Shown here: positions 2,868-23,649 of the stretch, piece by piece
Position numbering within the stretch: the first letter of the stretch is position 1
How the letters are laid out: every line of letters begins with the position of its first letter
From: Aestuariibaculum sediminum
GTDB taxonomy: Bacteria > Bacteroidota > Bacteroidia > Flavobacteriales > Flavobacteriaceae
DNA: 38,201 nucleotides
Assembly (NCBI RefSeq): GCF_014596945.1
Contig: NZ_JACVXB010000014.1
Coordinates: 1-38,201 of the forward strand
Reading direction: 5' to 3'
Translations under genes and position numbers: made by a program
The notes under the pieces: model-generated
Database searches by the model: none
What the model was told of the DNA's origin: nothing
The model's input: only the letters and a program-made list of their open reading frames with translations

Positions 2868-4850
2868 ATGAAATATCTAGGTTACTTATTATTGACATCA
2901 ATATTATTTTCTTGTAATCAGAAACCCAAGGATGTGCAACGTTGCTTGGAACTTGCTGGAGAAAATAAGGCTGAACTACAAAAAGTAATAAATCACTATC
3001 TTAAAACTAAAGAAAATTTAAAGTTGGAAGCAACTTATTTTTTGATTGAAAACATGGATACAAAGTATTCATATAATAATGAAGAAATAGGGCCTCATAA
3101 AAGTCTTCTGAGTTTTGTAGATTCTTTGCATAAAGCCCAAGACCCAGTAATTATCAACCCTTCAAAATTCTGGACAGGAGATAATGTTTTTACAGATGGG
3201 CATACTGTAGTAGATAGTTATTGGGACACGCTAAAATTGAAAAATGGACCATTAAACTCAAGATCCTTAACTGTTTTACCTGACCTTCAAACTGTTAAGG
3301 CTAATCAGTTAATCGAAAATATTGATTATGCGTTTAAGGTCTGGGAAAATCCTTGGGCAAAGCATTTAAATTTTGATCAATTTTGTGAATATGTTCTTCC
3401 GTACCGAAATTTGACAGAACCTATTACTCAATGGAGAAAAGAGGTTTATGAAGACTATAAATCTGAATTAAAAAAAGTAAATTATTCTGAAAATATAGCG
3501 CTCAATGCCGCCCAAGCTCTATATGAAAGGGTAAGTGTTGTTAAAAATAACTATTTTACTTTTAGAGAATATCCAGATTTGGGATGGGAAGATTTAAATA
3601 AGGTAAGGATGGGAACTTGTAGAGATCAGAGTAATTTTATTATATATGTTATGCGCTCACAAGGAATTCCAATTGGAACTGTGTTTCTCCCTTATGGAAC
3701 GGAATGGGAAGTACTTCTAGACTCTAAAGGAAATTATTTGCAGTTTGGTGCTGAAAATTTTCCTCCAGATGAAGATTCTAATTATTATTTATCCGAATGG
3801 AAAAGTCCAGCCACTTCTGCATCTAAATTTTTTCAGCATTCTTTTAAAAAGGATATGAGACTACTAAAAATGCTAGCATTGGAGGATATACCTCCTTTTT
3901 TTAGAGACCCTAATTTAAAAGATGTAACAGAATATTTACATGAAAACGCAAACGAAGTTAGTGTAGAAGTAATTAAGGGGTCTAAAGATCATAAGGTAAT
4001 TTATTTATGTGATTACACTTCGAGCAACAAATGGTCGGCAATAGATTGGACAGAAATCAAAAACGACAGATGTACTTTTTCATCTGTTGGGAGTGGTAAA
4101 ATTTATATGCCTGCAGAATATAAAAATAATGAGTATAATTATATTCATCCTCCAATATACTTGGAAGAAAATGGTCATAAAATAATTCTTAATGCAAATC
4201 TGGAAGAAAAGGAAAAAATTAGATTATATAGAAAGCATCCAAGAGGAATTGGGGAAACAAGATTTGCGAAAAAAATGATTGAAACCTATTTTCAGGTCGC
4301 TAATAAATCTGATTTTTCGGATGCAGTAACTATATTTAAGATAAAGGATATACCAGATAAGGCAGAAGAGGTGAAAGTTAATTTGAATAAGAAATATCAA
4401 TTTATTAGGCATGTTGCCGATACTACTATCAACATAGCCGAATTGGGTTTCTTTGACAAGAATGAGACACGTTTAAATGGAAAAGTCATATGTTCTTCAA
4501 AGGATACCAAGTTTAGACCTGAATATGCTTTTGATGGAAATATTAGAACTAATTACAATAATGATAATACAAAATCTTGGATTGGACTGGCACTAGATAG
4601 ACCTATTGAAATTTCTAAAGTGAAGTACTTGTTTAGGAATTCCTTTAATACTATCGAGCCAAACAATCAATATGAACTTTTTTATTGGCAAGATAGTGGT
4701 GGTTGGATATCCTTGGGGAAAAAAAATGCTCAACTGGATTATATAGATTTTATAGCACCAAAAAACGCTCTGCTATTATTAAGAAATCATACTCAAGGAA
4801 ATGCGGAAATGATATTTTTTATGAAGGCAGGAGAACAAATTTGGGGATAG
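2868..4850 (+). CDS. Transglutaminase-fold lipoprotein, divergent active site
   Basis: The 660-residue precursor begins with a lipoprotein signal (MKYLGYLLLTSILFSC; lipidated Cys16), so it should be anchored in the periplasm or on the surface. It is a clear paralog of the protein at 8091-10193. They share AGENKAELQKVINHY near the N terminus, ENIDYAFKVWENPWAKH at mid-length, a transglutaminase-like core, and a discoidin-like beta-rich C terminus ending QIWG. In the core, the nucleophile is kept (GTCRDQ, Cys251), but the following segment GTEWEVLLDSKGNYLQFG lacks the His and Asp that the paralog has. It may be a non-catalytic peptide-binding or immunity version, or use other residues. It stands alone, 268 bp before the next gene, on the same strand. 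The fold call is moderately sure; the substrate is unknown. Confidence 0.7.
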   Translation: MKYLGYLLLTSILFSCNQKPKDVQRCLELAGENKAELQKVINHYLKTKENLKLEATYFLIENMDTKYSYNNEEIGPHKSLLSFVDSLHKAQDPVIINPSKFWTGDNVFTDGHTVVDSYWDTLKLKNGPLNSRSLTVLPDLQTVKANQLIENIDYAFKVWENPWAKHLNFDQFCEYVLPYRNLTEPITQWRKEVYEDYKSELKKVNYSENIALNAAQALYERVSVVKNNYFTFREYPDLGWEDLNKVRMGTCRDQSNFIIYVMRSQGIPIGTVFLPYGTEWEVLLDSKGNYLQFGAENFPPDEDSNYYLSEWKSPATSASKFFQHSFKKDMRLLKMLALEDIPPFFRDPNLKDVTEYLHENANEVSVEVIKGSKDHKVIYLCDYTSSNKWSAIDWTEIKNDRCTFSSVGSGKIYMPAEYKNNEYNYIHPPIYLEENGHKIILNANLEEKEKIRLYRKHPRGIGETRFAKKMIETYFQVANKSDFSDAVTIFKIKDIPDKAEEVKVNLNKKYQFIRHVADTTINIAELGFFDKNETRLNGKVICSSKDTKFRPEYAFDGNIRTNYNNDNTKSWIGLALDRPIEISKVKYLFRNSFNTIEPNNQYELFYWQDSGGWISLGKKNAQLDYIDFIAPKNALLLLRNHTQGNAEMIFFMKAGEQIWG

Positions 4851-5013
4851 ACAGGATGCGGTATATTTAATTGGTTCTATGTGAAATTTAAGAATTATCC
4901 CGTTATAAGTCCATATAGCCTGATAAAGTGTAGTTGTTTTATTTATAGTGTTAAAACATTTAAAATGATTATTTAGTAATCCTTATTTGAATGATTTGTC
5001 ATCTATAAACTGT

Positions 5014-6945
5014 ATGAATAAATCGTATTATTGTAAGTAAATAAAGACATTAAGCATCGTAAAAATTAATCATTTTATAGAAATAACTTTAGGTCTAATA
5101 GTTTTAATTATACTATTATTGATTCCTAGTATTAATTGTCATCAATACGTCAATTCAACAATAACAAGCAAGTTATTAATGTTTTTAGTTGTTTGTCTTT
5201 TGATTTTTGGAGTTCTTATATTCAGATTTCTTTTTTCTAAAAATCCATCAATAAATCTTTCCATATTAGATATAGGTCTTTTTATTCTTTTACTTTATGT
5301 TCTAATTAACAGGTATGTTATTCAAATTGAATTTGGTTTTTCAATTCGATATATTGAATTGTTAGGAATTAGTTTGTTTTATCTGGTTCTAAGAAGTTTA
5401 TCGGTGAAAGTCTATTCATGGTTGTTTTTAACCATTATTTTATCTTCAATATTACAAGCTATTCACGGAAATTTACAATTACTTGATTTTTGGGAGTCAA
5501 ATCATTCAGGATTTAAAATAACAGGTAGTTTTTTTAATCCAGGTCCTTATGCAGGTTTCTTAGCTTCTGTTTGGCCAGTAAGTTTAGGGATGTATTTTTT
5601 TAAAGATAAATTTTTGGTCGCTGCTAAATCGTTTAATTCTAACACAAAAATTGTAAATAGTGTTATTTCTGTTGCTTGTGAGTATATCCCATTGATTGGT
5701 CTTATAAGTGTATTTATTGTTTTACCATCCACTCAGTCCAGAGCTGCTTGGCTGGCTGTTATAATGAGTAGTACCCTCCTAATAGAATATAAGTATAGCT
5801 ATGCTGCTAGATTTTTAAAATCATTGAAAGGTTCAAAGAAAATTTATTTGGCAATTTTAGTTTTCTGTGTTTTTGCAGTTGGAATCCTGGGTGTATACCA
5901 TTTTAAAAAGGCTTCGGCTGATGGTCGTTTGTTTGTATGGAATGTTTCATCAGGTATCATAAAAGATAACCCTTTGACAGGTGTTGGATTTGATAGATTC
6001 AAAGCACACTATATGGATTATCAAGCCACTTATTTTAAAAGTAATAATGGGGCTTTAGCAGGAGATGTTGCAGATAATACATATTATGCGTTTAATGAGT
6101 GGCTTCAATTCATTGTTGAAGAAGGGTTTTTAGGTTTTGTAATACTGTTGTTTTTTTTATGGTGTTTGTATAAGGTCGTAAAGGAAAATCGAAATAAACA
6201 TCCGTTTATTATGATAGCTACTTCTATTTTACTGTCAATCGGTGTATTTTCCTTTTTTTCATACTCTTTACAAATACTACCTATTAAACTTTTAATTATA
6301 ACCTCATTTGCATTTTTGGCCAATTCTGATCAAAATAAATTTTTTAGGCTGATTAAAATAGACTCCCAACTCTCAGTAATAAAATTTTTTAAGGGGTTTT
6401 TGGCGGTGTTAGGATTTGTTATTGTATTTAAAGGCTATGAGTATTCTAAGTATTTAGAAGATGGATTTATTACATGGAAGAACGCAATAACTGTTTACCA
6501 ATATGGAGATTATGAAGGGTGCATTGATGAGTATCAAAAGGTCTATCAAGTATTTAAAAAAGATGGTGATTTTTTAATGAATTATGGGAAAGCCTTAACA
6601 ATGTCCAATAAGAACGAAAAAGCAATTCAAATATTGGAAAAATCAAAAATTTATCTAAATACCACGATTATTCAAACAGCCTTAGGAGATGCGTATAAGG
6701 ATTTAAAACAATATAAGAAGGCTGAAAAGGCTTATGAGCAAGCTTATAATATGATTCCCATTCGTTTTTATCCTTTGTATTTGTTGGCGAAGTTATATGA
6801 CGAAAGTGGAGATAAACAAAAGGCTCTTGAAATGGCTGATGAAATATTAAATAAAGAGACAAAAATTCCTTCAACGGCTATCAGGGAAATTAAGTCAGAA
6901 ATGAAAATAATTATAAATAAGTATGAAGGGCAAAATGATTTATGA
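5014..6945 (+). CDS. Wzy/O-antigen-ligase-like membrane protein with TPRs, early stop
   Basis: This polytopic inner-membrane protein has the Wzy_C/O-antigen-ligase hallmark region: SRAAWLAV after a hydrophobic block, DNPLTGVGFDRF, then a loop and NEWLQFIVEEGFLG. The last 170 or so residues form TPR-like repeats (WKNAITVYQYGDYEGCIDEY, LGDAYKDLKQYKKAEKAYEQ). Family members join glycans to lipid or protein acceptors. The start is odd. ATG at 5014 opens the frame (MNKSYYCK), TAA at 5038-5040 interrupts it, and the same frame then runs open through a perfect first membrane helix (about 5068-5130) to 6945. The only standard start after the stop is TTG at 5119, which would cut off most of that helix. 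Either codon 9 mutated or an ATT/ATA start is used. The HlyD-like gene follows 22 bp downstream. A role in modifying the peptides is inference from position. Confidence 0.7.
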
Positions 6946-6967
6946 TTCTTAAAAGGAAAATACAAAT

Positions 6968-8080
6968 ATGAAAGGCAAACACATAAATCAACGGCAAAGC
7001 ATCGTTTTACTTGTATTCTTTGTAATGGCTTTACTCTCTTGTAAAGAAGGTAAAAAGAAAGTCGATCAAGATCAGACAATAACAAAACAAGAATATTTAC
7101 CAGAAAAAAATGAGGTAGGTATTATGGTTTTAGAAAAAGGCATTTTTCAAAAGGAAATTGTCAGTAATGGAAAGCTTATTGCATTACAAAAAAATCAACT
7201 CAAGTTTGATGTGAGTGAAAATATAGATAAGCTTTTAGTAAAAAATGGTGATTATGTTAGAGAAGGGCAAACATTAGCTGTTTTAAAAGATTTTACTTAT
7301 CGGCAGTCGTATGATAAAGCAAAAATTAACCTAAAAAAAGCGGAGTTAGAATTTCATGATAAACTGGTGGGTAGAGGTTATGAAACTTTCAATAAGGACA
7401 GTATACCTTCTGAAGAATATGAAATGTTATCGATTCGTTCCGGGTATAAAGATGCACTGCATGATCTAAAGAACACCGAGTTCAATTTAAAATCTACAAA
7501 ACTCATTAGTCCTTTTAGTGGTAAGATAGCTAATATAAAATATAAAGAACATGAACAAATTAACGCAGGGGCAGATGTTATGACATTAATAAATGACACA
7601 GTTTTTGAAGTAGAGTTTTATTTAATAGAATCTGAAATTTTTCAAATACAGTTGGGTGGTGAAGTAGAAGTAGAACCTTTTGCTTCGGGAAAGTTGGTGA
7701 AAGGTACTATAACAGCAATTAATCCACAGGTAGAAAAGGATGGAACTATTTTAGTGAAGGGTAAAATTAATAATAGAGGAGCATTAATGGATGGTATGAA
7801 TGTTAAGGTTTATATAAAAAAGGATATCTCTAATCAGCTCGTAGTTCCTAAATCAGCTGTTGTTTTACGTCAAAATCAGGAAGTTTTATTTACGGTTAAA
7901 TCGGGGAGAACATATTGGACTTATGTACAGACTATTCATGAAAATAGTCATGAATACAGCGTCATTCCACATCCAGATAAGAGTAGTGCATCTTTAAAGG
8001 AAGGGGATTCTATAATTGTATCGGGGAATTTAAATTTAGCCCATGACGTAGAAGTTTTAATTAAAAGTACTAATCGATAA
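6968..8080 (+). CDS. RND efflux periplasmic adaptor (membrane-fusion) lipoprotein
   Basis: This 370-residue HlyD/AcrA-type membrane-fusion protein bridges an inner-membrane RND pump and an outer-membrane channel. It has a lipoprotein signal with Cys at LLSCKEG (about residue 25). A lipoyl-like half-motif follows (VSENIDKLLVKNGDYVREGQ), then a helical hairpin (AKINLKKAELEFHDKL) that is short for the family. The second lipoyl half (STKLISPFSGKIANIKYKEH) and a beta-barrel/membrane-proximal domain complete it. The downstream RND and TolC genes (10200, 13345) are its natural partners. The transglutaminase-fold gene at 8091 is inserted between them, 10 bp after this gene, so the lipoprotein is probably co-expressed with the pump. 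This is the only adaptor in the window although there are two RND permeases. Confidence 0.88.
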   Translation: MKGKHINQRQSIVLLVFFVMALLSCKEGKKKVDQDQTITKQEYLPEKNEVGIMVLEKGIFQKEIVSNGKLIALQKNQLKFDVSENIDKLLVKNGDYVREGQTLAVLKDFTYRQSYDKAKINLKKAELEFHDKLVGRGYETFNKDSIPSEEYEMLSIRSGYKDALHDLKNTEFNLKSTKLISPFSGKIANIKYKEHEQINAGADVMTLINDTVFEVEFYLIESEIFQIQLGGEVEVEPFASGKLVKGTITAINPQVEKDGTILVKGKINNRGALMDGMNVKVYIKKDISNQLVVPKSAVVLRQNQEVLFTVKSGRTYWTYVQTIHENSHEYSVIPHPDKSSASLKEGDSIIVSGNLNLAHDVEVLIKSTNR

Positions 8081-8090
8081 TTTTTTTGTA

Positions 8091-10193
8091 ATGAATTTTA
8101 GTAAAAGTATAAATTCAATAGTAGCCTTAAGGAATTCTCTAGTTTATATTATAACATCAATTTTGTTTGTTTTTCTATTTTCATGCAATCAATTACCTAA
8201 TGAGGTAGAGGAAAGTTTAAAGTTAGCAGGAAATAATAGGGATGAACTTCAAAAGGTACTGGATCATTACCAAAAACCTGAAGACAGCTTAAAATTGAGA
8301 GCAGCTTATTTTTTAATTTCAGAGCAAGTTCCTTATGGAGTATTTACAGATAGTAGAAATGATCAATTGTTAAATGATTATTTTAATGCTTTTGAAGATT
8401 CATTAGCAGTTTATTTTTGTAAAGAAAGTGACAAAAACATAGAAGAAAGAAAGGATATAATAAATAGCATTATTAAAAAATACCAACTTAATCATGGCAA
8501 AGTTTTTAGAAATAAATGGTCTTTAAAAAGAGATATACACCATATTACAGGAGCATTTTTAATTGAAAATATAGATTATGCTTTTAAAGCTTGGGATTTA
8601 CCTTGGGCTAAACATTATAGTTTTGATGAGTTTTGTAATTATATTTTACCTTATAGAGAAGGAAAGCATTACCCTAATTCTTGGCGTAAATATTTTTTTG
8701 AGGAATTTATGGGTTTCAGGGATTCTTTAGGGCAAGAAAGAGATCCTCTTGTAGCGGCTGAAAAGCTTAAAAAATATTTAGGTAATATGAAATTTATTTC
8801 TGGAGGGCTTTATGATGCTCCAGAATGTCTTTTAAGTTCCGTTATGTATAAATATAAAATTACTGGAAACTGCGTTAGTATATCGACATTTATACAGGAG
8901 GTTTTAAGAGCACAAGGTATTGCAACTGTTGAAGTTTTAGTAAATAAGTTTGGACATACAGCAAAAGATCATGTTTCTAATGGGGTTTTAGATAATAATG
9001 GGAGTTGGCATTACTTTGATGGTATTCCTAGTGCTCCTGGGAGTTTAAATATTAAGGATGAAGTTACTAAATTATACAGGAAAAAACCTATTGTTCGAAA
9101 TGAACTAACTCAAACAAAAGGAGAAGCATTTAATCATCTTAACCTTTTCGGTTGGGAAGATATAACTAAAGATCTGATTGATTGTTATGATATATCCATC
9201 AATTTAAAAGATTTATATTGTAAAAATTTACCTATAGCCTACTTATGTATTTTTGACAATCTTAGTCATGGAGGTTGGGTTCCTATCGATTGGGGGGAGA
9301 TTGATAAAGACCTAAGAAAAGTTACCTTTAAAGACATTGGAGGTAAGGAAGTTGTTTATTTAGTCATGGTTTATGATGAATTTAATAACTTAAAACCAGT
9401 TAGTTCTCCTTTTGTTTTAAAAAATGATGGTGCGATTGATTATTTAAATATAAAAAGAGGTGTTGATGATAGAAGGGAAATGATAATAGATAGAAAGTTT
9501 TCTCCTAAGCAACATTTAAATAAAATCGCAAAGAATTTAATTGAAGGACGATTTGAAGGGGCAAATTCCCCAGATTTTAAGAAAAGAGAAGTTTTATACA
9601 CCTTAAAAAATATAACAGATGTTAATAGTAAATTGATAGAAATTGAGCCTAAAAATTATCAATATTATCGTTTCGTATTTCCAAAAATAAAAGACAGTTT
9701 GTACTATGATATAGCTGAACTTGGTTTTGGTAATTTAACTTCTAATTCTTTTCGTAAAGAGAATGGCGATTATATAAGTTCAAAAGGTATAAATGCAACT
9801 ATTCAAAATAGCTATTTTGATGATGACTTATTGAGTTATACAACTATTTACAGGAAGGAAGGTGTGTTAAAAGCATATATGCCAAGTTTGAAGGAAGTTT
9901 GTGTTGATATTGATAAAGAGGTTTGGATTGGTATTGATTTAGGAAGTTCTAAGAGTATTTCACAACTTTATCTATGTCCAAGAACTGATAAGAATAGTAT
10001 TTACCCTAAAATGGATTATGAATTACTTTATTGGGATAATAGATGGGTGTCTACGGGTATAAGAAATACTAATCAAGGATATTTGAAATATGATGATTTA
10101 CCAAGCAACACTTTGTATTGGCTTAGAAATTATACAGAGGGTAAAGAGGAACGCATTTTTACTTATGAAGATGGTAAACAAATTTGGTGGTAA
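8091..10193 (+). CDS. Transglutaminase-fold lipoprotein with intact catalytic triad
   Basis: The 700-residue precursor has a long n-region, a hydrophobic stretch and a lipobox (FLFSC, Cys32). It is a paralog of the lipoprotein at 2868-4850 along its whole length, including the C-terminal discoidin-like segment ending QIWW. The transglutaminase-like core keeps a complete triad in the expected order: Cys261 in ITGNCVS, His294 in KDHVSNG and Asp310 in HYFDGIP. Proteins of this fold act as cysteine proteases, peptide cross-linkers or amidases. It sits between the adaptor (10 bp upstream) and the RND pump (6 bp downstream), so it is almost certainly part of the export operon. Processing or cross-linking of the exported peptides is a reasonable guess, not shown. 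Confidence 0.75.
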   Translation: MNFSKSINSIVALRNSLVYIITSILFVFLFSCNQLPNEVEESLKLAGNNRDELQKVLDHYQKPEDSLKLRAAYFLISEQVPYGVFTDSRNDQLLNDYFNAFEDSLAVYFCKESDKNIEERKDIINSIIKKYQLNHGKVFRNKWSLKRDIHHITGAFLIENIDYAFKAWDLPWAKHYSFDEFCNYILPYREGKHYPNSWRKYFFEEFMGFRDSLGQERDPLVAAEKLKKYLGNMKFISGGLYDAPECLLSSVMYKYKITGNCVSISTFIQEVLRAQGIATVEVLVNKFGHTAKDHVSNGVLDNNGSWHYFDGIPSAPGSLNIKDEVTKLYRKKPIVRNELTQTKGEAFNHLNLFGWEDITKDLIDCYDISINLKDLYCKNLPIAYLCIFDNLSHGGWVPIDWGEIDKDLRKVTFKDIGGKEVVYLVMVYDEFNNLKPVSSPFVLKNDGAIDYLNIKRGVDDRREMIIDRKFSPKQHLNKIAKNLIEGRFEGANSPDFKKREVLYTLKNITDVNSKLIEIEPKNYQYYRFVFPKIKDSLYYDIAELGFGNLTSNSFRKENGDYISSKGINATIQNSYFDDDLLSYTTIYRKEGVLKAYMPSLKEVCVDIDKEVWIGIDLGSSKSISQLYLCPRTDKNSIYPKMDYELLYWDNRWVSTGIRNTNQGYLKYDDLPSNTLYWLRNYTEGKEERIFTYEDGKQIWW

Positions 10194-10199
10194 ATAGAT

Positions 10200-13100
10200 A
10201 TGGTAAAATTCCTTATTCATAAGCCTATCGCTGTTTTAATGACTACATTGGGAATACTCATTTTAGGTATTTATGCCTTGGGGTTAATCCCTGTGTCTTT
10301 AATGCCAGATATTGACATACCTGAGATTACGGTTCAGGTTTCTGTAGATAATATGTCGGCCAGGCAGATAGAAGATGCTGTAGTGAAACCCTTGCGCCGA
10401 AATTTAATGCAATTAAGTCATCTTAAAGATATTACCAGTGAATCGAGCAATGGCTTAGGAGTTTTACAACTTGAATTCAACCATGGCACTAAAATAGATT
10501 ATTCTTTTATAGAGGTTAATGAAAAGATAGACCGTGCCATGGCTGGTTTTCCAAAAACCATGGAGCGTCCTAAGGTGATTAAATCCAGTGCGACAGATAT
10601 TCCTGTTTTTTATTTAAGTATGACCCTTAAAGATGATGGTTCAGCTAAAGCCATAAGTTCAGAGCTTCATCCTGTATCCCAAAAGTTCGTAGATTTTAAT
10701 CGCTTTGCCAATCAGGTAATCCGAAAGCGTATTGAACAGGTTCCTGAAGTGGCCATGGTAGACATTTCAGGTTTGGTGTCTTCTGAAATATTAATCATTC
10801 CCGATCAAAATAAATTGGATGGCTTGGGTATTAGTTTAGATGAGTTAGAGGCTAACATAAAAAAGCATGATATAGAGATAGGAAGCTTACTTATTAAAGA
10901 CAGTCAATACCAATATGATGTAAGATTAGGGAACTCGCTTAAAAATATACAAGAGTTAAAGGATATTTATATTCATAAAAACAACCGTTTATACCAATTA
11001 AAAGAATTGGCAGAGGTGTTGGAACACCCTCAAAAAAGAACGGGATTGGTGTTGTCTGATACAAAGGAAGCCATAATCATGGCTATTATCAAGCAAAGTG
11101 ATGCCCGTATGGGGGATTTAAAAGCATCGCTAAATACATTGATGGGCTATCTGAAAAAGGATTATCCCAATATAGAATTTGTTATAACCAGAGATCAAAC
11201 AAAGTTATTGGATTATGCTATTAATAATCTGTTTCAAAGTTTATTATGGGGAATGTTGCTGGCTTTTGGTATTATGTTCCTGTTTTTAAAAAATGTAAAA
11301 TCTCCATTGCTTATAGGGATTGTAGTTCCGGTATCCTTAATTGTTTGTTTATTATGCTTTCAATGGCTTCAAATTTCAATAAACATTATCTCCTTATCCG
11401 GATTGGTGCTTGGCATCGGACTTATGATTGACAATTCTATCATTGTAATAGATAATATCATTCAGTTTAGGGAGCAAGGTTACAAGTTATCAAAAGCTTG
11501 TGTAAAGGGAACCAATGAAGTTATAAAACCATTACTGAGTTCAGCACTGACGACTTGTGCGGTATTTTTACCCTTAATATTTTTAAGTGGGATTAGTGGG
11601 GCCTTATTTTATGATCAGGCCATGGCGATAACCATAGGTTTGTTTGCTTCTTTTGTTGTTTCCATTACTTTATTGCCTGTTCTATACCGATTGTTTCATT
11701 TGAAAGACACAAATAAGCCAGGTCTTATTACCAAATTTCTCACCAAAACAAATAGATTAGATTATGCGGCGTTTTACGAAAGAGGTTTCAAATGGGTCAT
11801 GAGACATCAAAAAATGGCCTGGCTGGTTTGTGCTTTGTTATTAGTGCTAACTTTTGGGTTGTATAATATAATCCCTAAAACCCAAATGCCAAATTTCACG
11901 ACTACGGAAACGCTTTTAAGAATTGATTGGAACAGTCCTATTCATGTTGAAGAAAATAAAAGCAGGGTGTTGGATATTCTAGGCGGGATACAGGGAAAGT
12001 TAGTGAATCAAACAGCGCTTGTGGGGCATCAACAATTTCTCTTGGATAAAACCACTCAGGCTAAAACTTCAGAAACCACATTGTATTTGCAATGTCATAG
12101 CCCTGAAGAGCTAACTGAGACGATTGATATTATAGAAAAGTCAATTCAAGAGCATTATCCATCCACTCTGATGGAATTTAAAGATGTCGATAATATATTT
12201 AATCTTATTTTTTCAGACAATAAAGCTAAGTTAACAGCACGGATACGACCTGTAGGAGACCTTGGAGATAACCAAAATGAAGAGTTAAAAAACCTTTGGT
12301 TTCAATTGCAAGGACAATTTAATGAACTCAAATTAAAACCAATTGTTTGGCAGGATTATATGACTTTGGTAGCCAATCAGGAGAAGCTGATGACCTATGG
12401 GGTAAGTTCCAATAGTATATTCAGTACATTAAAGAGTGCTTTTAATGAACGTGAAATATTAACAATTGTAGATAATCAAAGTTTTGTTTCTGTTATTCTA
12501 GGTGGTGAAAAAAGCTCTGTTGAGCACATTTTAAATGAAACAACTGTGGTTTCTCAGGATAGTGCCGTATTTAATGTAAAAGACTTTGTAAAAGTAGTTA
12601 TGGCAAGTGATTTAAAAACGATTACAGGAGGTGGAGAAGGGGAGTATTATCCCTTATCTCTAAATCTTGATGATAAGCTTGTCAATGGATCCATGGAAAA
12701 GATCGAAACCGTAGTTCATAATAATCCCTGGTATGATGTTAATTTTTCAGGAAGCTATTTTAGTAGTCAGGAACTTTTAGGAGAATTAAAAATAGTACTT
12801 CTTTTATCTCTGGTGCTACTTTATTTTATTCTGGCTTCACAATTTGAATCCTTTACCTTACCGCTAATCATATTACTTGAAGTCCCTTTAGATTTAGCAG
12901 GAGCCTTTCTGTTTTTAAAGTTATTTGGTATGAGTATTAATTTAATGTCCATGATAGGTATTGTAGTTATGAGTGGTATTATTATAAACGATTCTATATT
13001 AAAGATAGATACCATAATACAATTGCAAAAACAGGGGTATTCATTAATGAAGGCTTTGTTAGTGGCAGGACAGCGACGATTAAAACCTATTTTAATGACC

Positions 13101-15442: not shown

Positions 15443-15760
15443 ATGAATTTAAAGAAAAAAATAATAGGAATGTTAGGTGTAACTGTTATAGCTACAGCTG
15501 TGTTCTTTACTAGTAATTTAAATATCCATAAAGGAGGAAACTATACTTTAGGAGAATTGATAACTGCGGCTGTAGCTCAAACAGAAACAGGAGGAGGAAC
15601 CGGTGTTTGTTTTACAAAAACTATAATAAGTTGTGGAGATTATTTATTTGGAGATAAGGTTATTTGTGATCAGACAGGGGATTACAAGCAAGGAGAGAGT
15701 TGTTCGCCCAAAAATTGTAGTTTTTCTACACCACCAAAAAAATACTGTATACAATACTAA
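15443..15760 (+). CDS. Six-Cys secreted peptide precursor 1 (NVEALA-like)
   Basis: The 105-residue precursor has a basic start (MNLKKKIIG), a hydrophobic segment (about residues 8-25), and a polar linker. A conserved block TLGELITAAVAQTETGGG follows, then a core of about 50 residues with six Cys. Cleavage after AVA (AxA rule) would release a core starting QTETGGG. Cys spacing is x7, x10, x11, x4, x9. The plan resembles Bacteroidota NVEALA peptides, whose leaders end in a similar Ala-rich motif before a Cys-bearing core. The leader is identical at nucleotide level to that of precursor 3 (15443-15630 equals 16293-16480). The core ends KKYCIQY. Function is unknown; a secreted toxin, bacteriocin or signal is possible. 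Confidence 0.8.
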   Translation: MNLKKKIIGMLGVTVIATAVFFTSNLNIHKGGNYTLGELITAAVAQTETGGGTGVCFTKTIISCGDYLFGDKVICDQTGDYKQGESCSPKNCSFSTPPKKYCIQY

Positions 15761-15773
15761 AAATAAACTTTAT

Positions 15774-15825
15774 CCTTTATTTCAGGTTGATTCCAAATTT
15801 TAGATATTAATAAAAGAAATAAAGG
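15774..15825 (+). promoter_or_regulatory. Conserved long-loop inverted repeat between peptide genes 1 and 2
   Basis: CCTTTATTTC (15774-15783) pairs with GAAATAAAGG (15816-15825) across a 32-nt loop. The whole spacer occurs again after peptide gene 3 with one visible change in the loop. It may be an mRNA processing or stability element, or just have been copied in the duplication. Confidence 0.4.
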
Positions 15826-15849
15826 TGTCTATTTTGAAAAAATAACATT

Positions 15850-16188
15850 ATGAAATTAAAAAAAGTAATACTAAGTACATTTTTTTGCATGTTTATTGCA
15901 ATAACAGGTTTGAATATCAGTAGAATAGTAGATGAAAATACAAATAACTTCGACACCTCTTATTCCCTAAGTGAATTGATTCAAGTAGCTGTAGCTCAAA
16001 CAGAAACAGGAGGTGGTTCGGTTAAATGTTTTACAAGAACTATAACAAATTGTGGTTTTCCTGCATATAATGAAAAAGTAACTTGTGATACTACGGGAGA
16101 TTATAAATTAGGAGAAGAATGTTCAGAAACTACTTGCACGAACAGTAGTCCACAGACAAAAAGATGTCAGCAAAACATTAATGGATAA
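15850..16188 (+). CDS. Six-Cys secreted peptide precursor 2 (NVEALA-like)
   Basis: The 112-residue precursor has a second leader type (MKLKKVILSTFFCMFIAITG), with a linker rich in Asp and Asn. It ends in SLSELIQVAVAQTETGGG. The core has six Cys at the same spacing as precursor 1, but its residues are of the second core class: KCFTRTITNCG, the shared TGDYKLGEEC, then SSPQTKRCQQN. Its leader is identical in DNA to that of precursor 4 over 137 nt (15850-15986 equals 16703-16839), while the two cores differ. One extra Cys lies inside the hydrophobic leader segment and would be removed. Expected to be exported and cut after AVA; activity unknown. Confidence 0.8.
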   Translation: MKLKKVILSTFFCMFIAITGLNISRIVDENTNNFDTSYSLSELIQVAVAQTETGGGSVKCFTRTITNCGFPAYNEKVTCDTTGDYKLGEECSETTCTNSSPQTKRCQQNING

Positions 16189-16292
16189 TAGATTAAATTA
16201 TTATGAGATGTATTTTGTATTTCACATATATTTTTAAGTGTCATACATTTCTTAAATAGTAGAAATCAAAAAAATAATTAAAATTTTTAAAA

Positions 16293-16613
16293 ATGAATTT
16301 AAAGAAAAAAATAATAGGAATGTTAGGTGTAACTGTTATAGCTACAGCTGTGTTCTTTACTAGTAATTTAAATATCCATAAAGGAGGAAACTATACTTTA
16401 GGAGAATTGATAACTGCGGCTGTAGCTCAAACAGAAACAGGAGGAGGAACCGGTGTTTGTTTTACAAAAACTATAATAAGCTGTGGAAGTATAAGTATAT
16501 ATGGAGATATGGCTATTTGTGATCAGACAGGGGATTACAAACAAGGAGAGACCTGTCAGCCTATAGAGTGTAGTTTTTTTACTCCACCGGAAAAATCCTG
16601 TATAAAATACTAA
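16293..16613 (+). CDS. Six-Cys secreted peptide precursor 3 (NVEALA-like)
   Basis: This 106-residue precursor is a near copy of precursor 1 through the leader and the first Cys loop. The two diverge sharply after the second Cys: here the loop is GSISIYGDMAI, one residue longer than in the others. It then converges again at CDQTGDYKQGE and ends EKSCIKY. All six Cys are kept. The loop between Cys2 and Cys3 and the tail after Cys4 are the variable parts of the family. This gene begins the second copy of the duplicated two-gene unit (offset about 850 bp from precursor 1). Confidence 0.8.
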   Translation: MNLKKKIIGMLGVTVIATAVFFTSNLNIHKGGNYTLGELITAAVAQTETGGGTGVCFTKTIISCGSISIYGDMAICDQTGDYKQGETCQPIECSFFTPPEKSCIKY

Positions 16614-16626
16614 AAATAAACTTTAT

Positions 16627-16678
16627 CCTTTATTTCAGGTTGATTCCAAATTTTAGGTATTAATAAAAGAAATAAAGG
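16627..16678 (+). promoter_or_regulatory. Second copy of the inter-peptide inverted repeat
   Basis: CCTTTATTTC (16627-16636) and GAAATAAAGG (16669-16678) repeat the element found after precursor 1. Both arms are intact, and the visible substitution lies in the loop. Confidence 0.4.
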
Positions 16679-16702
16679 TGTCTATTTTGAAAAAATAACA
16701 TT

Positions 16703-17032
16703 ATGAAATTAAAAAAAGTAATACTAAGTACATTTTTTTGCATGTTTATTGCAATAACAGGTTTGAATATCAGTAGAATAGTAGATGAAAATACAAATAA
16801 CTTCGACACCTCTTATTCCCTAAGTGAATTGATTCAAGTTGCTGTAGCTCAAACAGAATCAGGAGGAGGAACGGGGGTTTGTTTTACAAAAACTATAATA
16901 AGTTGTGGTTTTCCTTTATTCGATGACAAGGTTATATGCGATCAGACAGGAGACTATAAACAGGGAGAGTCTTGTCAGCCAGATGATTGCAGTCTCATTG
17001 ATTTGCCAGAAAAAGTATGTATAAAATATTAA
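16703..17032 (+). CDS. Six-Cys peptide precursor 4, leader/core chimera
   Basis: The 109-residue precursor joins the leader of precursor 2 (MKLKKVILSTFFCMFIAITG, then SLSELIQVAVAQTE) to a core of the precursor 1/3 class (TGVCFTKTIISCG, CDQTGDYKQGESC, ending EKVCIKY). DNA identity to precursor 2 holds through 16839. From about 16862 the sequence follows precursor 1, including GGAGGAGGAAC and the run through TTGTGG. The switch lies in the codons for AVAQTE, which are shared by all five genes. It has Ser in place of Thr in TESGGG. All six Cys are present with the common spacing. Confidence 0.8.
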   Translation: MKLKKVILSTFFCMFIAITGLNISRIVDENTNNFDTSYSLSELIQVAVAQTESGGGTGVCFTKTIISCGFPLFDDKVICDQTGDYKQGESCQPDDCSLIDLPEKVCIKY

Positions 17033-17060: not shown

Positions 17061-17393
17061 ATGAAGTTAAAAATGAAAAAACATATTAAAATAATTGCCG
17101 TATTTTCAATTGTAATGGGAGGGCTTTTCTATATTACTGAGGATATAGATATAGATAACCAAGACTCTACATTTTCTTTAAGTGAATTGATGGAAGTGGC
17201 TGTAGCTCAAACAGAAACAGGAGGTGGTTCGACAAAGTGTTTTAAAAGAACTATAACAACTTGTGGTTGGCCTCTTTATAATGACAAGCTTGTTTGCGAA
17301 ACTACAGGGGATTACAAACAGGGAGAGGAGTGCACCCCATCCACATGTGATGACTCACACCAAGAAACAAAGAGATGTCAAAATCCAAATTAA
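17061..17393 (+). CDS. Six-Cys secreted peptide precursor 5 (NVEALA-like)
   Basis: The 110-residue precursor has a third leader type: basic start with KMKKHIK, hydrophobic IIAVFSIVMGGLFYI and an Asp-rich linker (EDIDIDNQD). It ends in SLSELMEVAVAQTETGGG. The core belongs to the precursor 2 class (KCFKRTITTCG, CETTGDYKQGEEC, then ETKRCQNPN) with six Cys. It begins 28 bp after precursor 4 and is the last of the array; a strong hairpin follows. The leader differs from the others in DNA, so it is an older member of the family rather than part of the recent duplication. ATG at 17073 is a possible alternative start. Confidence 0.8.
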   Translation: MKLKMKKHIKIIAVFSIVMGGLFYITEDIDIDNQDSTFSLSELMEVAVAQTETGGGSTKCFKRTITTCGWPLYNDKLVCETTGDYKQGEECTPSTCDDSHQETKRCQNPN

Positions 17394-17440: not shown

Positions 17441-17468
17441 AATTATTCACAGTAAAAAATAATTAATT

Positions 17469-18653
17469 ATGAAATATTTAGTGCTTATTATACTTGTTTT
17501 TGGAATCTCATGTAGTAAAATAGAAAATAAAACAAATTCAAAAAAAATTTATATTCAGTGTGATTCTCTTCAAAGTGTAATTGATATTGGGGCATTTGTT
17601 GAAAACATTGAAATTACACCATTAAAAGAAGAAAGAGGGGCTTACATTGGTGAAGCGCATAAAGTTCTTAAAACTAAAGATCATTATATTGTTTTTGATA
17701 AATCTATTACTAAACGTATAGTTGTTTTTGACACAGTAGGTGGTTTCGTGAAAAATGTTATTACTTTAGGAAGAGGACCTGGTGAAGCAATTCAGTTGAA
17801 CGATTGTTGGATAAATAATGAAGGTAACCTTGAAATTTATGATTTCGCACTCAAAAAGGTTTTCACATGTAATAGGGATTTTGATATTGTAAAAGAAACC
17901 AAAACATCTAAATTTATATTTTCAGCTCTATCTAGAATACCTAAAAGTAATAGTTTTGCTGGGTTTAAGAATTATTCTTCTTATAACCCTGAACATGAAG
18001 GGAAACGTTATCAAGTTGCCATATTAGATAATAGTTTAAAGAGTATTGAGGATACAGATCTTTTTTATAATGATGAACTTGATGGAATTTCTATTATTGA
18101 ATCTTCAAATCCTTTTCAGAAAATTAACGATACTTTACGATTTTCTAATTATTTAAACCCTTTTATATATGATATTTCTGTTAATAATAACTTTGTTAAA
18201 AGGTTTGAACTTGTGTATTCACCTAATCCTTTTCCTGTAGATTATGAAGAAAGTATTCTTTTGGACAATAGAGGGGTTCTTAAATTTAGTCCTGGAACTC
18301 TAAAGACAAAAGATATAACAGAAGGTTATAATGGGTATGCGGGAATTTGGATGGAAACTAATGATTATGTAATTATAGGGTCATTTAATTCTAAATACGA
18401 AAGATTTTATTCTTTGTTAAGAAAAACAGATAATCAAATAATGGTTCAGTCTAAACAATTTAGTGTTTCGAAAAACTTATTTAAGAGGTTACCGGATTTT
18501 ATGGTTTCTGAGGTTGAGGAGAATTCATTTACAGCATTAGTGCCAGGTATTCATTTAGAGTATATTTTAAATGATGATCATCCAATAATGAAAAACAGGT
18601 CGGATTATTTGGATAAAAATTTCATTATAAAAGTCAAATTAAAAAGGATATGA
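17469..18653 (+). CDS. 6-bladed beta-propeller lipoprotein
   Basis: The 394-residue precursor has a lipoprotein signal (VFGISC, Cys15). Its N-terminal part is typical of Bacteroidota 6-bladed beta-propeller lipoproteins: a strand leading to IEITPLKEE, then HYIVFDKSITKRIVVFD, and the family signature GRGPGEAIQLND. Repeated strand-turn-strand units (LEIYDFALKKVFTCNRDFDIV) follow. These proteins often accompany NVEALA-type peptides in Bacteroidota and may bind or display the product; that link is from memory of the family and its role is unproven. It starts 28 bp after the hairpin of the peptide array and overlaps the next gene by 4 bp (ATGA). Confidence 0.75.
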   Translation: MKYLVLIILVFGISCSKIENKTNSKKIYIQCDSLQSVIDIGAFVENIEITPLKEERGAYIGEAHKVLKTKDHYIVFDKSITKRIVVFDTVGGFVKNVITLGRGPGEAIQLNDCWINNEGNLEIYDFALKKVFTCNRDFDIVKETKTSKFIFSALSRIPKSNSFAGFKNYSSYNPEHEGKRYQVAILDNSLKSIEDTDLFYNDELDGISIIESSNPFQKINDTLRFSNYLNPFIYDISVNNNFVKRFELVYSPNPFPVDYEESILLDNRGVLKFSPGTLKTKDITEGYNGYAGIWMETNDYVIIGSFNSKYERFYSLLRKTDNQIMVQSKQFSVSKNLFKRLPDFMVSEVEENSFTALVPGIHLEYILNDDHPIMKNRSDYLDKNFIIKVKLKRI

Positions 18654-19288
18654 AAAAAACATTAATTCTATTTTTAATACTTTCAATATTATTTTCGTTG
18701 TATCTTTTAATTCAAAAGGGTAGACTAACTTTGGGTTATAATGATTTAAGGATTGTTGTTAATAAGCAGCAAGATAGCCTGAATAAGGCTTTAATGCAAA
18801 GCGATTATTTTAATTCGTTAGCAATGAAAAATTATCAATTAGGAAATTTAAAAATTAAAAAACTTGATCTCTACAAGTTTAATGATACAGGTCTAAAAAT
18901 TAAAACAAAATTACCAGAAGGTGATAAAAAGAAATTTATTATACGATATTCAGATATTGGATGTAACACATGTGTAAATCTTATTTTTAAAAGACCAGAA
19001 AGAATTAAAAGAATACAAGAAAAATTTGATATAATAGTTTTAGTTGATTTTAATAGATATGAAGATTTTGTTCTATGGAAACGAGCTTCAGAAATAGGTA
19101 ACAATGTTTTTTGGGTAAAAAAAGGAGAGTTACCGTTTGATAGTCTTTTTGAACCCAGTTCATATTCGTTTATTTTAGATGAAAAATTAGAAGTTCATTC
19201 ATTTTTTGTTCCTAATAATGTATTTCCAGATGAGGTTCACAATTATTTGAATATACTTCTTAACAACAATGATAAATTCCAAGAATAG
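18650..19288 (+). CDS. Membrane-anchored thioredoxin-like protein with CxxC
   Basis: The 212-residue protein has one N-terminal hydrophobic anchor (ILFLILSILFSLYLLI) and a periplasmic domain. A beta strand (KKFIIRYSDIGCNTCVNLIF) carries a CNTC motif. DIIVLVDFNRYEDF and YSFILDEKLEVHSFFVP follow, in the strand order of TlpA/redoxin-type folds. The CxxC implies a thiol-disulfide exchange role. It lies in one transcript with the propeller (ATGA overlap) and the signal peptidase (20-bp overlap), right after genes for six-Cys peptides. Making or shuffling their disulfides is therefore an attractive hypothesis. The helix after the motif is shorter than in classical thioredoxins, so the fold call is moderate. 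Confidence 0.6.
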   Translation: MKKTLILFLILSILFSLYLLIQKGRLTLGYNDLRIVVNKQQDSLNKALMQSDYFNSLAMKNYQLGNLKIKKLDLYKFNDTGLKIKTKLPEGDKKKFIIRYSDIGCNTCVNLIFKRPERIKRIQEKFDIIVLVDFNRYEDFVLWKRASEIGNNVFWVKKGELPFDSLFEPSSYSFILDEKLEVHSFFVPNNVFPDEVHNYLNILLNNNDKFQE

Positions 19289-20483
19289 GTATAATAATGA
19301 TTTTAAATTAAGTTTAAAATTAAGAAAAATAAGGATAAATAAAAGAGGGCTTGTGTTTTTAATTTTGTTAACCATAGTTTTCTTCTTTCCGTTCTGGTTT
19401 TTTGTTCTTATAAATTTAGTTATTCTTTTGTTTTATGCGTCAAAATATTTGATCCGTAAGATTAAAAACTTAAAAGTTAGGTTTTTGTTTAACTCTAGTC
19501 AATTTATTTTATTTATTTATATTATTTGTTTTAGTTTTCGGTTGTTCTGTTTTGAAATTTATTTTATACCAAGTTCATCAATGGCTAATACTTTATATCC
19601 TAAAGATATTATTGTGGTAAACAAATTAAAATATGGTCCAAGATTACCAAAGTATATTCTTGAAACTCCCTTGCTTAGAATCTTTTTTAATAAACGGGAT
19701 AGATCAAATGGAATTTCAAAACAGAACAATGGGAAGCTTAAGCGATTACCAGGTATAAGTAGTATAAATCGAGGAGATATTGTAGTTTTCGAAAATAGTA
19801 AAGTCATTGTAAAACGTTGTGTGGCCATTGCAGGTGATACCTTAAAAATAGTTAATGGAAAAGTTTATATTAATGATAGTGTTGAAAGATTTTCAAATAA
19901 TATTAAAAACAATTATACTTTAAGGATAAATAATCCCCTTATTTTTTATAAAGCCTTAGATTCCCTTAAAATTGAATCAAATATTCTATCTGTTAACAGG
20001 AATAAATGGAAGCAATTGAATCTTTCAAATATTGAGGTGGTACATGTTAATAAGCTAAGATGTATAGATTCTTTGGAATTAAAGTTAATGGATTTTTCCG
20101 TTAATACTAATCTATTCCCTTGGGCTAAGGACCATCCATGGACTTTGGATAATTATGGTCCAATTGTTTTACCCAAAAAAGGTATGGAAATACAGTTAAA
20201 TGATGATACTTTTCAATTTTATGGATATACTTTAAAGAAACATGAGAAGGTTGAAATCTATAAGGAAAATGGATTGTTCTATAAAGAAGGGAAGTTATTG
20301 GAAACTTATACTTTTAGGAGAAATTATTTATTTATGTTGGGTGATAATAGAAAGGAGTCAATGGACTCTAGGTATATCGGATTTGTTCCAGAAGAAAATG
20401 TTATAGGGGAAGTTTCCTGTGTACTATTTTCTACTAAGGATCAGCATTTTCAATGGAGCCGTTTTTTTAAAAAAGTAGAATAG
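19269..20483 (+). CDS. S26 signal peptidase I (LepB-like), cluster-specific copy
   Basis: The 404-residue inner-membrane serine protease has two or three N-terminal membrane segments (about 28-60 and 77-97). The catalytic Ser is in FIPSSSMANTL (Ser104). The general-base Lys is in VIVKRCVAIAGDTLKI (Lys182), and the box LGDNRKESMDSRYIGFVP is near 355-373. Compared with E. coli LepB, it has a long insertion between the Lys box and the GDNR box, as in many Bacteroidota. The start ATG 19269 overlaps the thioredoxin-like gene by 20 bp, which suggests translational coupling. Cells already have a housekeeping signal peptidase, so a copy inside this block points to a dedicated substrate: the peptide leaders with AVA before the core. 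Confidence 0.92.
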   Translation: MINSKNRYNNDFKLSLKLRKIRINKRGLVFLILLTIVFFFPFWFFVLINLVILLFYASKYLIRKIKNLKVRFLFNSSQFILFIYIICFSFRLFCFEIYFIPSSSMANTLYPKDIIVVNKLKYGPRLPKYILETPLLRIFFNKRDRSNGISKQNNGKLKRLPGISSINRGDIVVFENSKVIVKRCVAIAGDTLKIVNGKVYINDSVERFSNNIKNNYTLRINNPLIFYKALDSLKIESNILSVNRNKWKQLNLSNIEVVHVNKLRCIDSLELKLMDFSVNTNLFPWAKDHPWTLDNYGPIVLPKKGMEIQLNDDTFQFYGYTLKKHEKVEIYKENGLFYKEGKLLETYTFRRNYLFMLGDNRKESMDSRYIGFVPEENVIGEVSCVLFSTKDQHFQWSRFFKKVE

Positions 20484-20496
20484 GTTTTATATTATA

Positions 20497-23400: not shown

Positions 23401-23649
23401 AAACAATACCCCTATAGAAACCGCCAACAATTATATTTTAAGGCATTCAATTATAAGATTATACCAGTGATTTTAACCATTGTTTCCACCGTTGTTGGTC
23501 TGATACCTTTTGTATGGCATGGCCAAAATGAAGTGTTTTGGTTTTCATTTGCAGTAGGAGCAATAGGAGGATTATTATTCTCTTTAATAGGCCTCTATTT
23601 TTATTTGCCTATGTTTGGGATGAAAAGAAAAAGTAAAAGAGTTGAGTAA
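20497..23649 (+). CDS. Second RND family permease, without its own adaptor
   Basis: The 1050-residue protein has the RND layout with twelve predicted helices and two large periplasmic domains. Its N terminus (SLTVSFNWPEASARVVEQEVTSKLEG, written here in part) matches the family. TM4 reads FGIIIDNSIIMID, keeping Asp403 with Asn404 after it, as in the first RND protein. TM10 reads LLCGISVNSALFIIND. It is only distantly similar to the protein at 10200-13283. It follows the signal peptidase gene by 13 bp and has no adaptor or channel gene beside it. It may share the adaptor at 6968, form a mixed trimer with the first permease, or act without a channel. It ends the same-strand block. Confidence 0.9.
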   Translation: MKQKSPSFTILTVFLCLSIIGASLIPLLNVQLKPTLTNKSLTVSFNWPEASARVVEQEVTSKLEGVFNLVRGIEGISSTSRKGGGSVSIDFKNHVDMDVIRFEVANLIRQSYSGLPEGVSYPSLSKGGANENTSPIVSYSINANESPYFIKKYVESQLLPKLSTLKGVNKVDVYGAAPYEWVIDYNSEILFQLQISVSELQGAINSYLNKKELGKAFIHSQKQSSDSEIALVLAYKPQGDINWNQIPIKKINNRIIYLKDIATIRYKEGKVNSYYRINGLNTVNMVVYAEKGVNTISLAKEVRQTVDNFKKQLSPGYSIKMTQDTTEFIVSELDKIQKRTLFSLLILLVLILLINRSFKYLMILLLSIAVNLLIAIIFYYALGVQLQLYSFAGITISFGIIIDNSIIMIDHMRNKGNKKSFLAILAATLTTIGALIVIFFLEENQRLNLWDFAIVIAVNIGVSLLVSLYFVPALMDKIRLDKKYTRFSIRRKRRVIKFTKFYSAVVFWMCKPKLKWAFIVLFILGFGLPLHLLPKELKTETFGSKLYNDTFGYEWYNTELRPFLEKALGGSLRLFTEDVFENSYYSEPERTTLRVTGSMPDGCTIEQLNEVILKMENYIGQFEEVSLYETRISSSKSSNITIYFKEEYEYSGFPYTLKSMLESKSISLGGLDWTVSGVGRGFSNALGNGYKSNRIILEGYNYDDLYSYAELLQEQLEVNSNGRVKDIEITTGRWGASPLNEYYMAFNEKQLALANVSQNQLYDFLKNQVHSGNIASIIQDHERQDIKLVSDNYQKFTIWDLKNLPISVNNKQYKLDQLASVEKRKSGNTIYKNNQQYQLTVAYDFLGTQPLAQKVREHNVKELRDKLPIGYRVLEQSYNYWNKKDSTQYYYIFIVIFIIFFICAILLESLHQPFAIISMIPISFIGVFLMFYLFEFNFDQGGYASFILLCGISVNSALFIINDYNNLRKQYPYRNRQQLYFKAFNYKIIPVILTIVSTVVGLIPFVWHGQNEVFWFSFAVGAIGGLLFSLIGLYFYLPMFGMKRKSKRVE

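What the first reader, a model, noticed from the sequence alone, without database searches (positions are those of the whole stretch)
2868..23649. Candidate undescribed peptide maturation and export system built on RND pumps
One same-strand block joins five six-Cys peptide precursors with every function needed to mature and release them: an extra signal peptidase, a CxxC thioredoxin-like protein, an adaptor, a TolC channel and two RND permeases. It also carries a Wzy-like protein, a propeller and two transglutaminase-fold lipoproteins. Known small-peptide exporters in Gram-negative bacteria are mostly ABC/peptidase systems. RND pumps collect cargo from the periplasm, which fits Sec-exported, disulfide-bonded peptides. 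The seen part is gene order and motifs; the pathway is inferred.
Basis: partly seen in the sequence, partly recalled or inferred. Interest (0 to 1): 0.9.

Follow-up and report, generated by a model that had tools for sequence, protein, structure and literature searches.

The report
Disulfide peptides with dedicated RND pump
A block of genes that recurs across the Bacteroidota phylum makes small cysteine-rich peptides with a shared leader and very different cores, together with what looks like their own signal peptidase, thiol enzyme and two-permease pump; it is probably an undescribed peptide maturation and secretion system, but export has not been shown.

Summary
Window 2868-23649 carries, on one strand, two transglutaminase-like lipoproteins, a Wzy/TPR protein, adaptor, RND1, TolC, a 66-aa HTH protein, five six-Cys precursors, a propeller lipoprotein, a CxxC thioredoxin-like protein, an S26 signal peptidase and RND2. 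It is not a chance neighbourhood: a database scan gave 63 other RND2 loci; of the 38 with at least 20 kb, 34 carry a propeller, redoxin, S26, transglutaminase-like or Wzy gene, against 1 of 27 control loci. The precursors share a leader plan with Pfam's NVEALA peptides of Bacteroidales, whose loci have the same block. Cores vary strongly and usually hold an even number of Cys (44 of 49). In the window, two gene pairs have leaders 99-100% identical in DNA but cores 87% and 65% identical. Best reading: Sec-delivered peptides, cut and oxidised in the periplasm, are pushed out by an MdtBC-like RND1/RND2-adaptor-TolC pump. Recurrence, leader plan and Cys parity are shown; cleavage, oxidation, transport and biological role are inferred. 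My peptide detector alone is only weakly enriched at RND2 loci (28 of 63 against 6 of 27, p=0.06).

The parts
2868..4850 (+). TG1: lipoprotein with transglutaminase-like core and F5/8C domain; the Cys column is kept, the His column reads T (probably inactive)
5119..6945 (+). WZY: O-antigen-ligase-like (Wzy_C) membrane protein with C-terminal TPR; start codon unclear
6968..8080 (+). MFP: periplasmic adaptor lipoprotein (HlyD/CusB type)
8091..10193 (+). TG2: transglutaminase-like lipoprotein, Cys and His columns kept
10200..13283 (+). RND1: AcrB/MdtB-like permease
13345..14850 (+). TolC-family outer-membrane channel (the open frame begins at 13213; likely ATG at 13345)
14868..15068 (+). 66-aa helix-turn-helix protein; in 11 of 63 GTDB RND2 loci a relative is present, in 9 directly after TolC
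15443..15760 (+). Peptide precursor 1, six-Cys core
15850..16188 (+). Peptide precursor 2, six-Cys core
16293..16613 (+). Peptide precursor 3; leader DNA 100% identical to precursor 1, core 87%
16703..17032 (+). Peptide precursor 4; leader DNA 99% identical to precursor 2, core closer to precursors 1 and 3 (mosaic)
17061..17393 (+). Peptide precursor 5, six-Cys core
15426..16915 (+). Tandem duplication: 15426-16062 matches 16278-16915 at 93.75%
17469..18653 (+). PROP: six-bladed propeller lipoprotein (DUF5128)
18650..19288 (+). TRX: thioredoxin-like protein with N-terminal membrane anchor, CNTC
19269..20483 (+). S26: signal peptidase I-type peptidase, second of two S26 genes in the genome
20497..23649 (+). 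RND2: divergent second RND permease, the marker used for the system

Best explanation
The block is the Flavobacteriaceae version of a Bacteroidota-wide system for making and releasing small disulfide-rich peptides. Each precursor enters the periplasm by Sec with a hydrophobic N-terminal segment. A second conserved segment (D-x-x-L-x-x-L-x5-A), its Ala about 24 residues beyond the hydrophobic one, ends in an A-x-A-type site, cut by the co-encoded S26 peptidase and giving a mature peptide that starts near Q, E or S. The membrane-anchored CxxC protein oxidises the paired cysteines. The peptide is then taken from the periplasm by a hetero-trimeric RND1/RND2 pump (as in MdtBC) and passed through the adaptor and TolC to the outside. 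The shared leader is the tag for the shared machinery. The propeller lipoprotein next to the peptide changes along with the core and is the likely cognate partner (immunity, receptor or holder). Shown: gene content, phylum-wide recurrence, leader plan, even Cys counts, leader/core mosaicism, catalytic motifs. Inferred: site of cleavage, oxidation by TRX, hetero-pump, transport by RND1/2, role of propeller, transglutaminase-like and Wzy proteins, and what the peptide does.
For: RND2 loci: 34 of 38 stretches of at least 20 kb carry a propeller, redoxin, S26, TG or WZY gene, against 1 of 27 control loci (Fisher 7e-13; still 34 of 38 without the two loosest clusters); the window's 22-row RND2 clade has a partner in 22 of 22 and a flagged peptide in 16 of 22. 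Flagged peptide followed directly by a propeller: 26 of 44 and 10 of 20, against 0 of 6 in controls. NVEALA over cut-off in 6 of 178 Bacteroidales genomes, 5 of them RND2-positive (RND2 in 25 of 178; p=2e-4). Same block with canonical NVEALA peptides in G620, G727 and Phocaeicola massiliensis. Leader profiles: A5 against NVEALA-locus set 95.7%, window set 74.8%. Even Cys in 44 of 49 cores. CxxC in 44 of 45 TRX. S26: Ser box 32 of 33, Lys box 32 of 33, GDN box 22 of 33. Conserved Ala 18-30 residues beyond the hydrophobic segment, median 24. Six within-locus pairs have leaders 88-100% and cores 20-77% identical; neighbouring propellers of one locus are 22-37% identical in 18 of 18 pairs.
Against: No protein or export data. 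The peptide detector flags 28 of 63 RND2 loci and 6 of 27 controls (p=0.06), so peptides as such are not proven to be at most RND2 loci. Peptides can lie far from pumps: other contigs in G845, G891 and G557 (draft assemblies), about 150 kb in G876; one NVEALA genome had no RND2 match (G783, 61% complete). RND2 loci without partner: L053, L057, L075, L083; 16 of 87 tree rows had none of the first partner set within 13 kb, many near contig ends. S26 lies in only 4 of 28 phylum-sample loci. Two of 15 listed within-locus pairs have cores more alike than leaders (G579, L063). Partner models were trained on RND2 loci, which favours them over controls, and the RND1 model also hits ordinary RND genes (26 of 27 controls). 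The leader profile is weak genome-wide (41 of 395, most look like chance). No usable peptide model (pLDDT 44).
Confidence: 0.6

Rival explanations
1. Immunity rather than export: the RND hetero-pump and propeller protect the cell from its own or neighbours' peptides, while the peptides leave by another route (vesicles, lysis or an unlinked exporter).
For: Efflux-based self-immunity to peptides is known for microcins (passages of PMC10352776). Pumps and peptides are sometimes unlinked in a genome.
Against: No second peptide exporter was evident among the 15 recurrent clusters of unclassified neighbours, judged from the starts of representative sequences and Pfam for two of them. The shared leader implies shared machinery.
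Confidence: 0.2
2. Envelope or redox-stress module: the peptides stay anchored in the inner membrane or periplasm as thiol or metal-binding factors, and the RND pump handles an unrelated substrate.
For: The long distance between hydrophobic segment and A-x-A site could mean that the precursor stays anchored. Thioredoxin-like and DUF1573 neighbours.
Against: By eye the 49 cores show no common metal-binding motif, and cores vary where leaders do not; an S26 peptidase lies in 28 of 63 loci.
Confidence: 0.12
3. Glycopeptide or glycan export: the Wzy_C/TPR protein links a glycan to the peptide (O-glycosyltransferase-like) and the pump exports the conjugate.
For: WZY in 10 of 63 GTDB loci and 6 of 28 phylum-sample loci, 0 of 27 controls.
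Against: Present in a minority of loci; nearly all of the matches that the solved-structure search listed lie in the TPR part.
Confidence: 0.08

Closest known systems
Heat-stable enterotoxin STII secretion by Sec, Dsb and MacAB-TolC (passages of PMC5985334)
   Same: A small Sec-delivered peptide is cleaved and disulfide-bonded in the periplasm, then taken up there by a tripartite pump and sent through TolC
   Different: MacB is an ABC transporter; here two RND permeases, an own signal peptidase, an own CxxC protein, propellers and hypervariable precursors lie together
Bacteroidetocins (passages of PMC6671954)
   Same: Bacteroidota peptides with at least two (A and B: four) Cys, most with a co-encoded thiol oxidoreductase; disulfide evidence from gel migration
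   Different: 15-16-aa GG leader and an ABC transporter with double-glycine peptidase domain; the passages seen name no RND, S26 or propeller gene
NVEALA proteins, Pfam PF14055
   Same: Same leader plan and same neighbours
   Different: The window's peptides do not match PF14055; no system is described for it in the searches made
MdtABC-TolC hetero-RND pump (two passages of PMC8277102)
   Same: Two different RND permeases with one adaptor and a TolC; RND1's best solved relative is MdtB
   Different: MdtABC is listed there for a drug (NOV, novobiocin by recall); RND2 here is a separate divergent lineage tied to this block

Membership tests
NVEALA-type peptides (PF14055) | Match to the Pfam profile over its cut-off | tested here: not met
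   No match for the five peptides or the own genome
NVEALA-type peptides (PF14055) | Leader plan: hydrophobic segment, then a segment such as L-x-x-L-x-x-N-V-E-A-L-A before a variable Cys-containing core | tested here: met
   Profile comparison 95.7% (36 leaders) and 74.8% (window set) with nine peptides from G620 and G727; L047 peptide bridges at E=2e-4, below cut-off
NVEALA-type peptides (PF14055) | Same genomic company | tested here: met
   G620, G727 and P. massiliensis maps
PCAT/C39 GG-leader bacteriocin loci | ABC transporter with C39 peptidase in the locus | tested here: not met
   No such domain among the Pfam hits of the ten larger proteins of the block
MacAB-TolC peptide secretion | MacB-type ABC permease | tested here: not met
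   Both permeases are ACR_tran RND proteins
MdtBC-like hetero-RND pump | Two different RND permeases, one adaptor, TolC in one locus | tested here: met
   Window and relatives
MdtBC-like hetero-RND pump | Permeases assemble as a heterotrimer | not testable with these tools
   Needs co-purification or a structure
Type I signal peptidase (S26) | Ser/Lys catalytic boxes | tested here: met
   Patterns of my own for the Ser and Lys boxes: each in 32 of 33 S26 proteins of these loci; window: PF10502 and TIGR02227 hits
Thioredoxin-like oxidoreductase | CxxC at the start of a helix in a thioredoxin fold | tested here: inconclusive
   CxxC 44 of 45; model with CNTC at 105-108, helix 106-113, pLDDT 84.9; PDB profile hits only E 0.2; fold search could not be run

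The most novel reading that the evidence does not exclude
A phylum-wide dedicated secretion system in which a hetero-RND pump exports ribosomal, disulfide-bonded peptides that were trimmed and oxidised in the periplasm; a constant leader serves the constant machinery while core and neighbouring propeller diversify together, partly by recombination, giving each strain its own peptide/partner pair for rivalry or signalling.
Probability: 0.4. Interest if true: 0.92.

Novelty: new variant of a known kind. Interest (0 to 1): 0.8.

Why it matters
If true, it gives the NVEALA proteins, for which I found no function in print, a pathway, adds an RND-based route to the known ways Gram-negative bacteria secrete peptides, and opens a large set of variable disulfide-rich peptides from marine and gut Bacteroidota. 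It is testable in gut species that carry the whole block (Phocaeicola massiliensis). A published table lists an O-antigen ligase, a hypothetical protein, a propeller, a signal peptidase and an RND adaptor at BT0662, BT0663, BT0664, BT0667 and BT0669 of B. thetaiotaomicron (passages of PMC10434189; values of 0.11-0.44 in the column that I read as p; sequences not checked here).

Tried and rejected
Pfam and NCBIfam on the window peptides gave nothing usable. A genome-collection scan with the peptides found no relative, so RND2 was used as marker. The peptide profile on 397 family genomes gave 6 at E<=0.01: own genome, G348 and G153 are real by synteny; G273 looks like chance on reading its locus; G148 and G256 I did not open beyond their match rows; the two other same-genus genomes listed had none. 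The leader profile (A5) on 395 phylum genomes gave 41 at E<=0.01; I credit five (G000, G466, G557, G620, G727) by E-value, frame length and repetition, and treat the rest as chance without opening most of them. A sigma-70 scan (68 sites, shuffles 54.1 with sd 6.7) and a Bacteroidota-type promoter pattern (3 sites, 3.4 expected; pattern recalled) told nothing. Ordinary efflux operon with unrelated neighbours: rejected because of the control loci. AlphaFold of the peptide was uninformative.

Counting limits. Partner HMMs were built from RND2 loci and then applied to controls. Propeller and redoxin counts include two loose clusters (one propeller-like cluster not checked by Pfam, one DoxX-like with CxxC in 1 of 9); without them 49 of 63, 34 of 38 and 23 of 28 loci still have a partner, instead of 50, 34 and 25. 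Controls: 6 stretches around other RND-type matches of the own genome (one, L222, a weak match without hit to my RND models), 20 from ten RND2-positive genomes, and L084. The peptide detector is a pattern of my own. Of 72 flagged ORFs, 49 with a same-strand propeller or peptide next or next but one entered the Cys count and 23 did not. The 43 seed peptides of relatives were hand-picked, 8 of 48 seeds were dropped because their leaders did not align in register (some, such as those of L023, L025 and L065, look like true peptides with variant leaders) and two from G153 were added; 36 of the resulting 40 distinct leaders went into, so its conservation counts are favourable by choice. The RND2 tree left out fragments (L064, L076, L077, L082, L083). 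Hypergeometric, Fisher and binomial values treat related genomes as independent.
Full report
What is there. The window is a whole 38.2-kb contig of a 4.04-Mb genome. Between IS3-like transposase pieces (964-2127, minus strand) and a tyrosine integrase with mobile-element genes (24062 onward) lies a same-strand block, 2868-23649: TG1, WZY, MFP, TG2, RND1, TolC, HTH, five peptides, PROP, TRX, S26, RND2. A PF10502 search finds one other S26 gene in the genome.

Peptides. Each precursor has a hydrophobic N-terminus, a second segment ending ..SELIQVAVAQTE..SELMEVAVAQTE or ..GELITAAVAQTE, and a core with six Cys. Genes 1 and 3 have identical leader DNA, 98% identical DNA in the 60 bases downstream and 87% identical cores; genes 2 and 4 have 99% identical leaders and 98% identical DNA in the 60 bases upstream but 65% identical cores, and the core of gene 4 is nearer to genes 1 and 3 (76% and 75%). 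In the cores of genes 1 and 3 synonymous sites differ as well (5 synonymous differences, pS 0.137, pN 0.139; leader 0), so the core was probably replaced by recombination rather than changed only by point mutation under selection; the numbers are small.

Recurrence. The first hint was synteny in two genomes of the same family. G153 has WZY-peptide-PROP-TRX-MFP-RND1-TolC-peptide-PROP-TRX up to a contig end. With the divergent RND2 as bait, 64 GTDB loci came back, 63 of them RND2 (L084 is an ordinary RND at 22% identity). Among the 63, propellers are in 45, redoxins in 31, S26 in 28, TG in 19, WZY in 10. Among the 38 with at least 20 kb: 33, 26, 25, 13, 9, and any of these in 34. In 28 loci of a phylum sample: 24, 12, 4, 2, 6, any in 25. 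In 27 control loci: one propeller and none of the others; that one (G620, contig 4) sits beside its own NVEALA peptide. Small ORFs flagged by my peptide pattern are in 28 of 63, 11 of 28 and 6 of 27 loci; that difference alone is weak (p=0.06). What separates them is the next gene: a propeller follows directly in 26 of 44, 10 of 20 and 0 of 6. In the phylum sample RND2 passes E 1e-120 in 28 of 395 genomes.

Link to NVEALA. PF14055 does not match the window, but two of 395 phylum genomes pass its cut-off, G620 and G727. Both have RND2 on the same contig and strand and the full block with several NVEALA peptides, propellers, TG, WZY, MFP, RND1, TolC, RND2 and S26. A Phocaeicola massiliensis record shows the same arrangement with a canonical NVEALA peptide. 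In 178 genomes of the order of G620, 6 pass the NVEALA cut-off and 5 of these have RND2, against 25 of 178 overall (p=2e-4); the sixth is 61% complete and had none at E 1e-40 either. The leader profile built without G620 or G727 sequences matches their peptides (95.7%), but it contains two NVEALA-like rows (L047, L059); the window's five alone give 74.8%.

Leader and cores. In 36 hand-picked leaders Ala is kept in 35 at the same column, Leu nine before it in 33, and the distance from the end of the hydrophobic segment to that Ala is 18-30 residues, median 24. From general knowledge, ordinary signal peptidase sites lie only a few residues beyond the hydrophobic core, so a dedicated S26 is a reasonable reader of this site; that is inference. 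Of 49 flagged peptides near a propeller or another peptide, 44 have an even number of core Cys (p=4e-9; 39 of 44 without the window), as expected of paired cysteines. Of 15 within-locus pairs with leaders over 40% identical, six have leaders 88-100% and cores 20-77% identical, and two (G579, L063) have cores more alike than leaders. Propellers beside the peptides of one locus are 22-37% identical to each other (18 of 18 pairs). So one part of each cassette follows the machinery and another part (core and propeller) goes its own way.

Machinery. S26 proteins of these loci keep the Ser box and the Lys box (32 of 33 each; GDN box 22 of 33). TRX proteins keep CxxC (44 of 45); the window's model shows a long N-terminal helix and then a thioredoxin-like order with CNTC at a helix start, but profile searches are weak and the fold search could not be run. 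Transglutaminase-like proteins keep Cys in 26 and the His column in 23 of 30 rows; TG1 of the window has T there. RND1 is closest to MdtB among solved structures; RND2 is more distant from those found. RND1-type genes lie in 46 of 63 and 24 of 28 RND2 loci, though this model also hits ordinary RND genes. The pair would suit a hetero-pump. The bacteroidetocin paper states that Bacteroides lack the general disulfide machinery and that the co-encoded thiol oxidoreductases likely do the job (passage of PMC6671954), which fits a dedicated TRX.

How it most likely works. Sec entry, cut at the A-x-A-type site by S26, oxidation by TRX, capture from the periplasm by RND1/RND2 with the adaptor, exit through TolC. 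[quoted passage not shown] What differs is the RND engine, the own peptidase and oxidase, the propellers and the variable cores.

Against. Peptides and pumps are not always neighbours (other contigs in G845, G891, G557; about 150 kb in G876); four long RND2 stretches show no partner; in the tree, 16 of 87 RND2 rows had none of the first partner set within 13 kb, many at contig ends; S26 lies in only 4 of 28 phylum-sample loci; nothing has been shown at protein level. The system may serve immunity or another substrate.

Known or not. Searches of the held library for NVEALA (0 papers), for combinations of RND, peptide and propeller words (2 papers, 134 papers of which 15 were listed, none), for Pfam accessions and DUF names (five papers listed, each with one 'pf14055', probably a Plasmodium gene name) and for B. 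thetaiotaomicron locus tags (one transcriptome paper) showed no description of the system. I saw listings, and passages of five papers. Most subscription papers, and preprints outside PMC, are not covered. I rate it a new variant of a known kind (two-step tripartite secretion of a disulfide peptide); its undescribed, phylum-wide form is the interesting part.

Noticed in passing
window 23650-38201: Right of the block lie a tyrosine integrase, KAP and YobI-like NTPases, a ParB-like protein, SSB, RadC and a DUF5712 protein (relaxase-like by recall): the block abuts a mobile element.
   Followed up: partly
window 964-2127: IS3-type transposase pieces on the minus strand left of the block (Pfam rve and HTH_Tnp_1; the IS3 label is recalled).
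   Followed up: partly
window 5050-5119: The Wzy/TPR frame is open upstream of its first TTG, but I saw no ATG, GTG or TTG where relatives begin.
   Followed up: partly
window 2868-4850: TG1 lacks the His column that most transglutaminase-like relatives keep, while its neighbour TG2 keeps it: possible division into an active and a binding copy.
   Followed up: partly
L017/L018 (G348): In Tamlana the block sits between what look like polysaccharide-degradation and sulfatase genes (by eye) and carries a truncated second S26 and a second propeller.
   Followed up: no
L250 14004-15424: Bacteroides finegoldii record holds an RND2 homologue broken into pieces with no other block gene found beside it, a sign of loss.
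   Followed up: no
L205/L247 (G557): A cassette of leader-profile peptides, propellers and a Wzy protein without RND genes found in 40 kb; the genome's RND2 homologue lies on another contig.
   Followed up: partly
B. thetaiotaomicron BT0662-BT0669 (PMC10434189): A published iron-response table lists an O-antigen ligase, hypothetical protein, propeller, signal peptidase and RND adaptor there, which looks like this block.
   Followed up: partly
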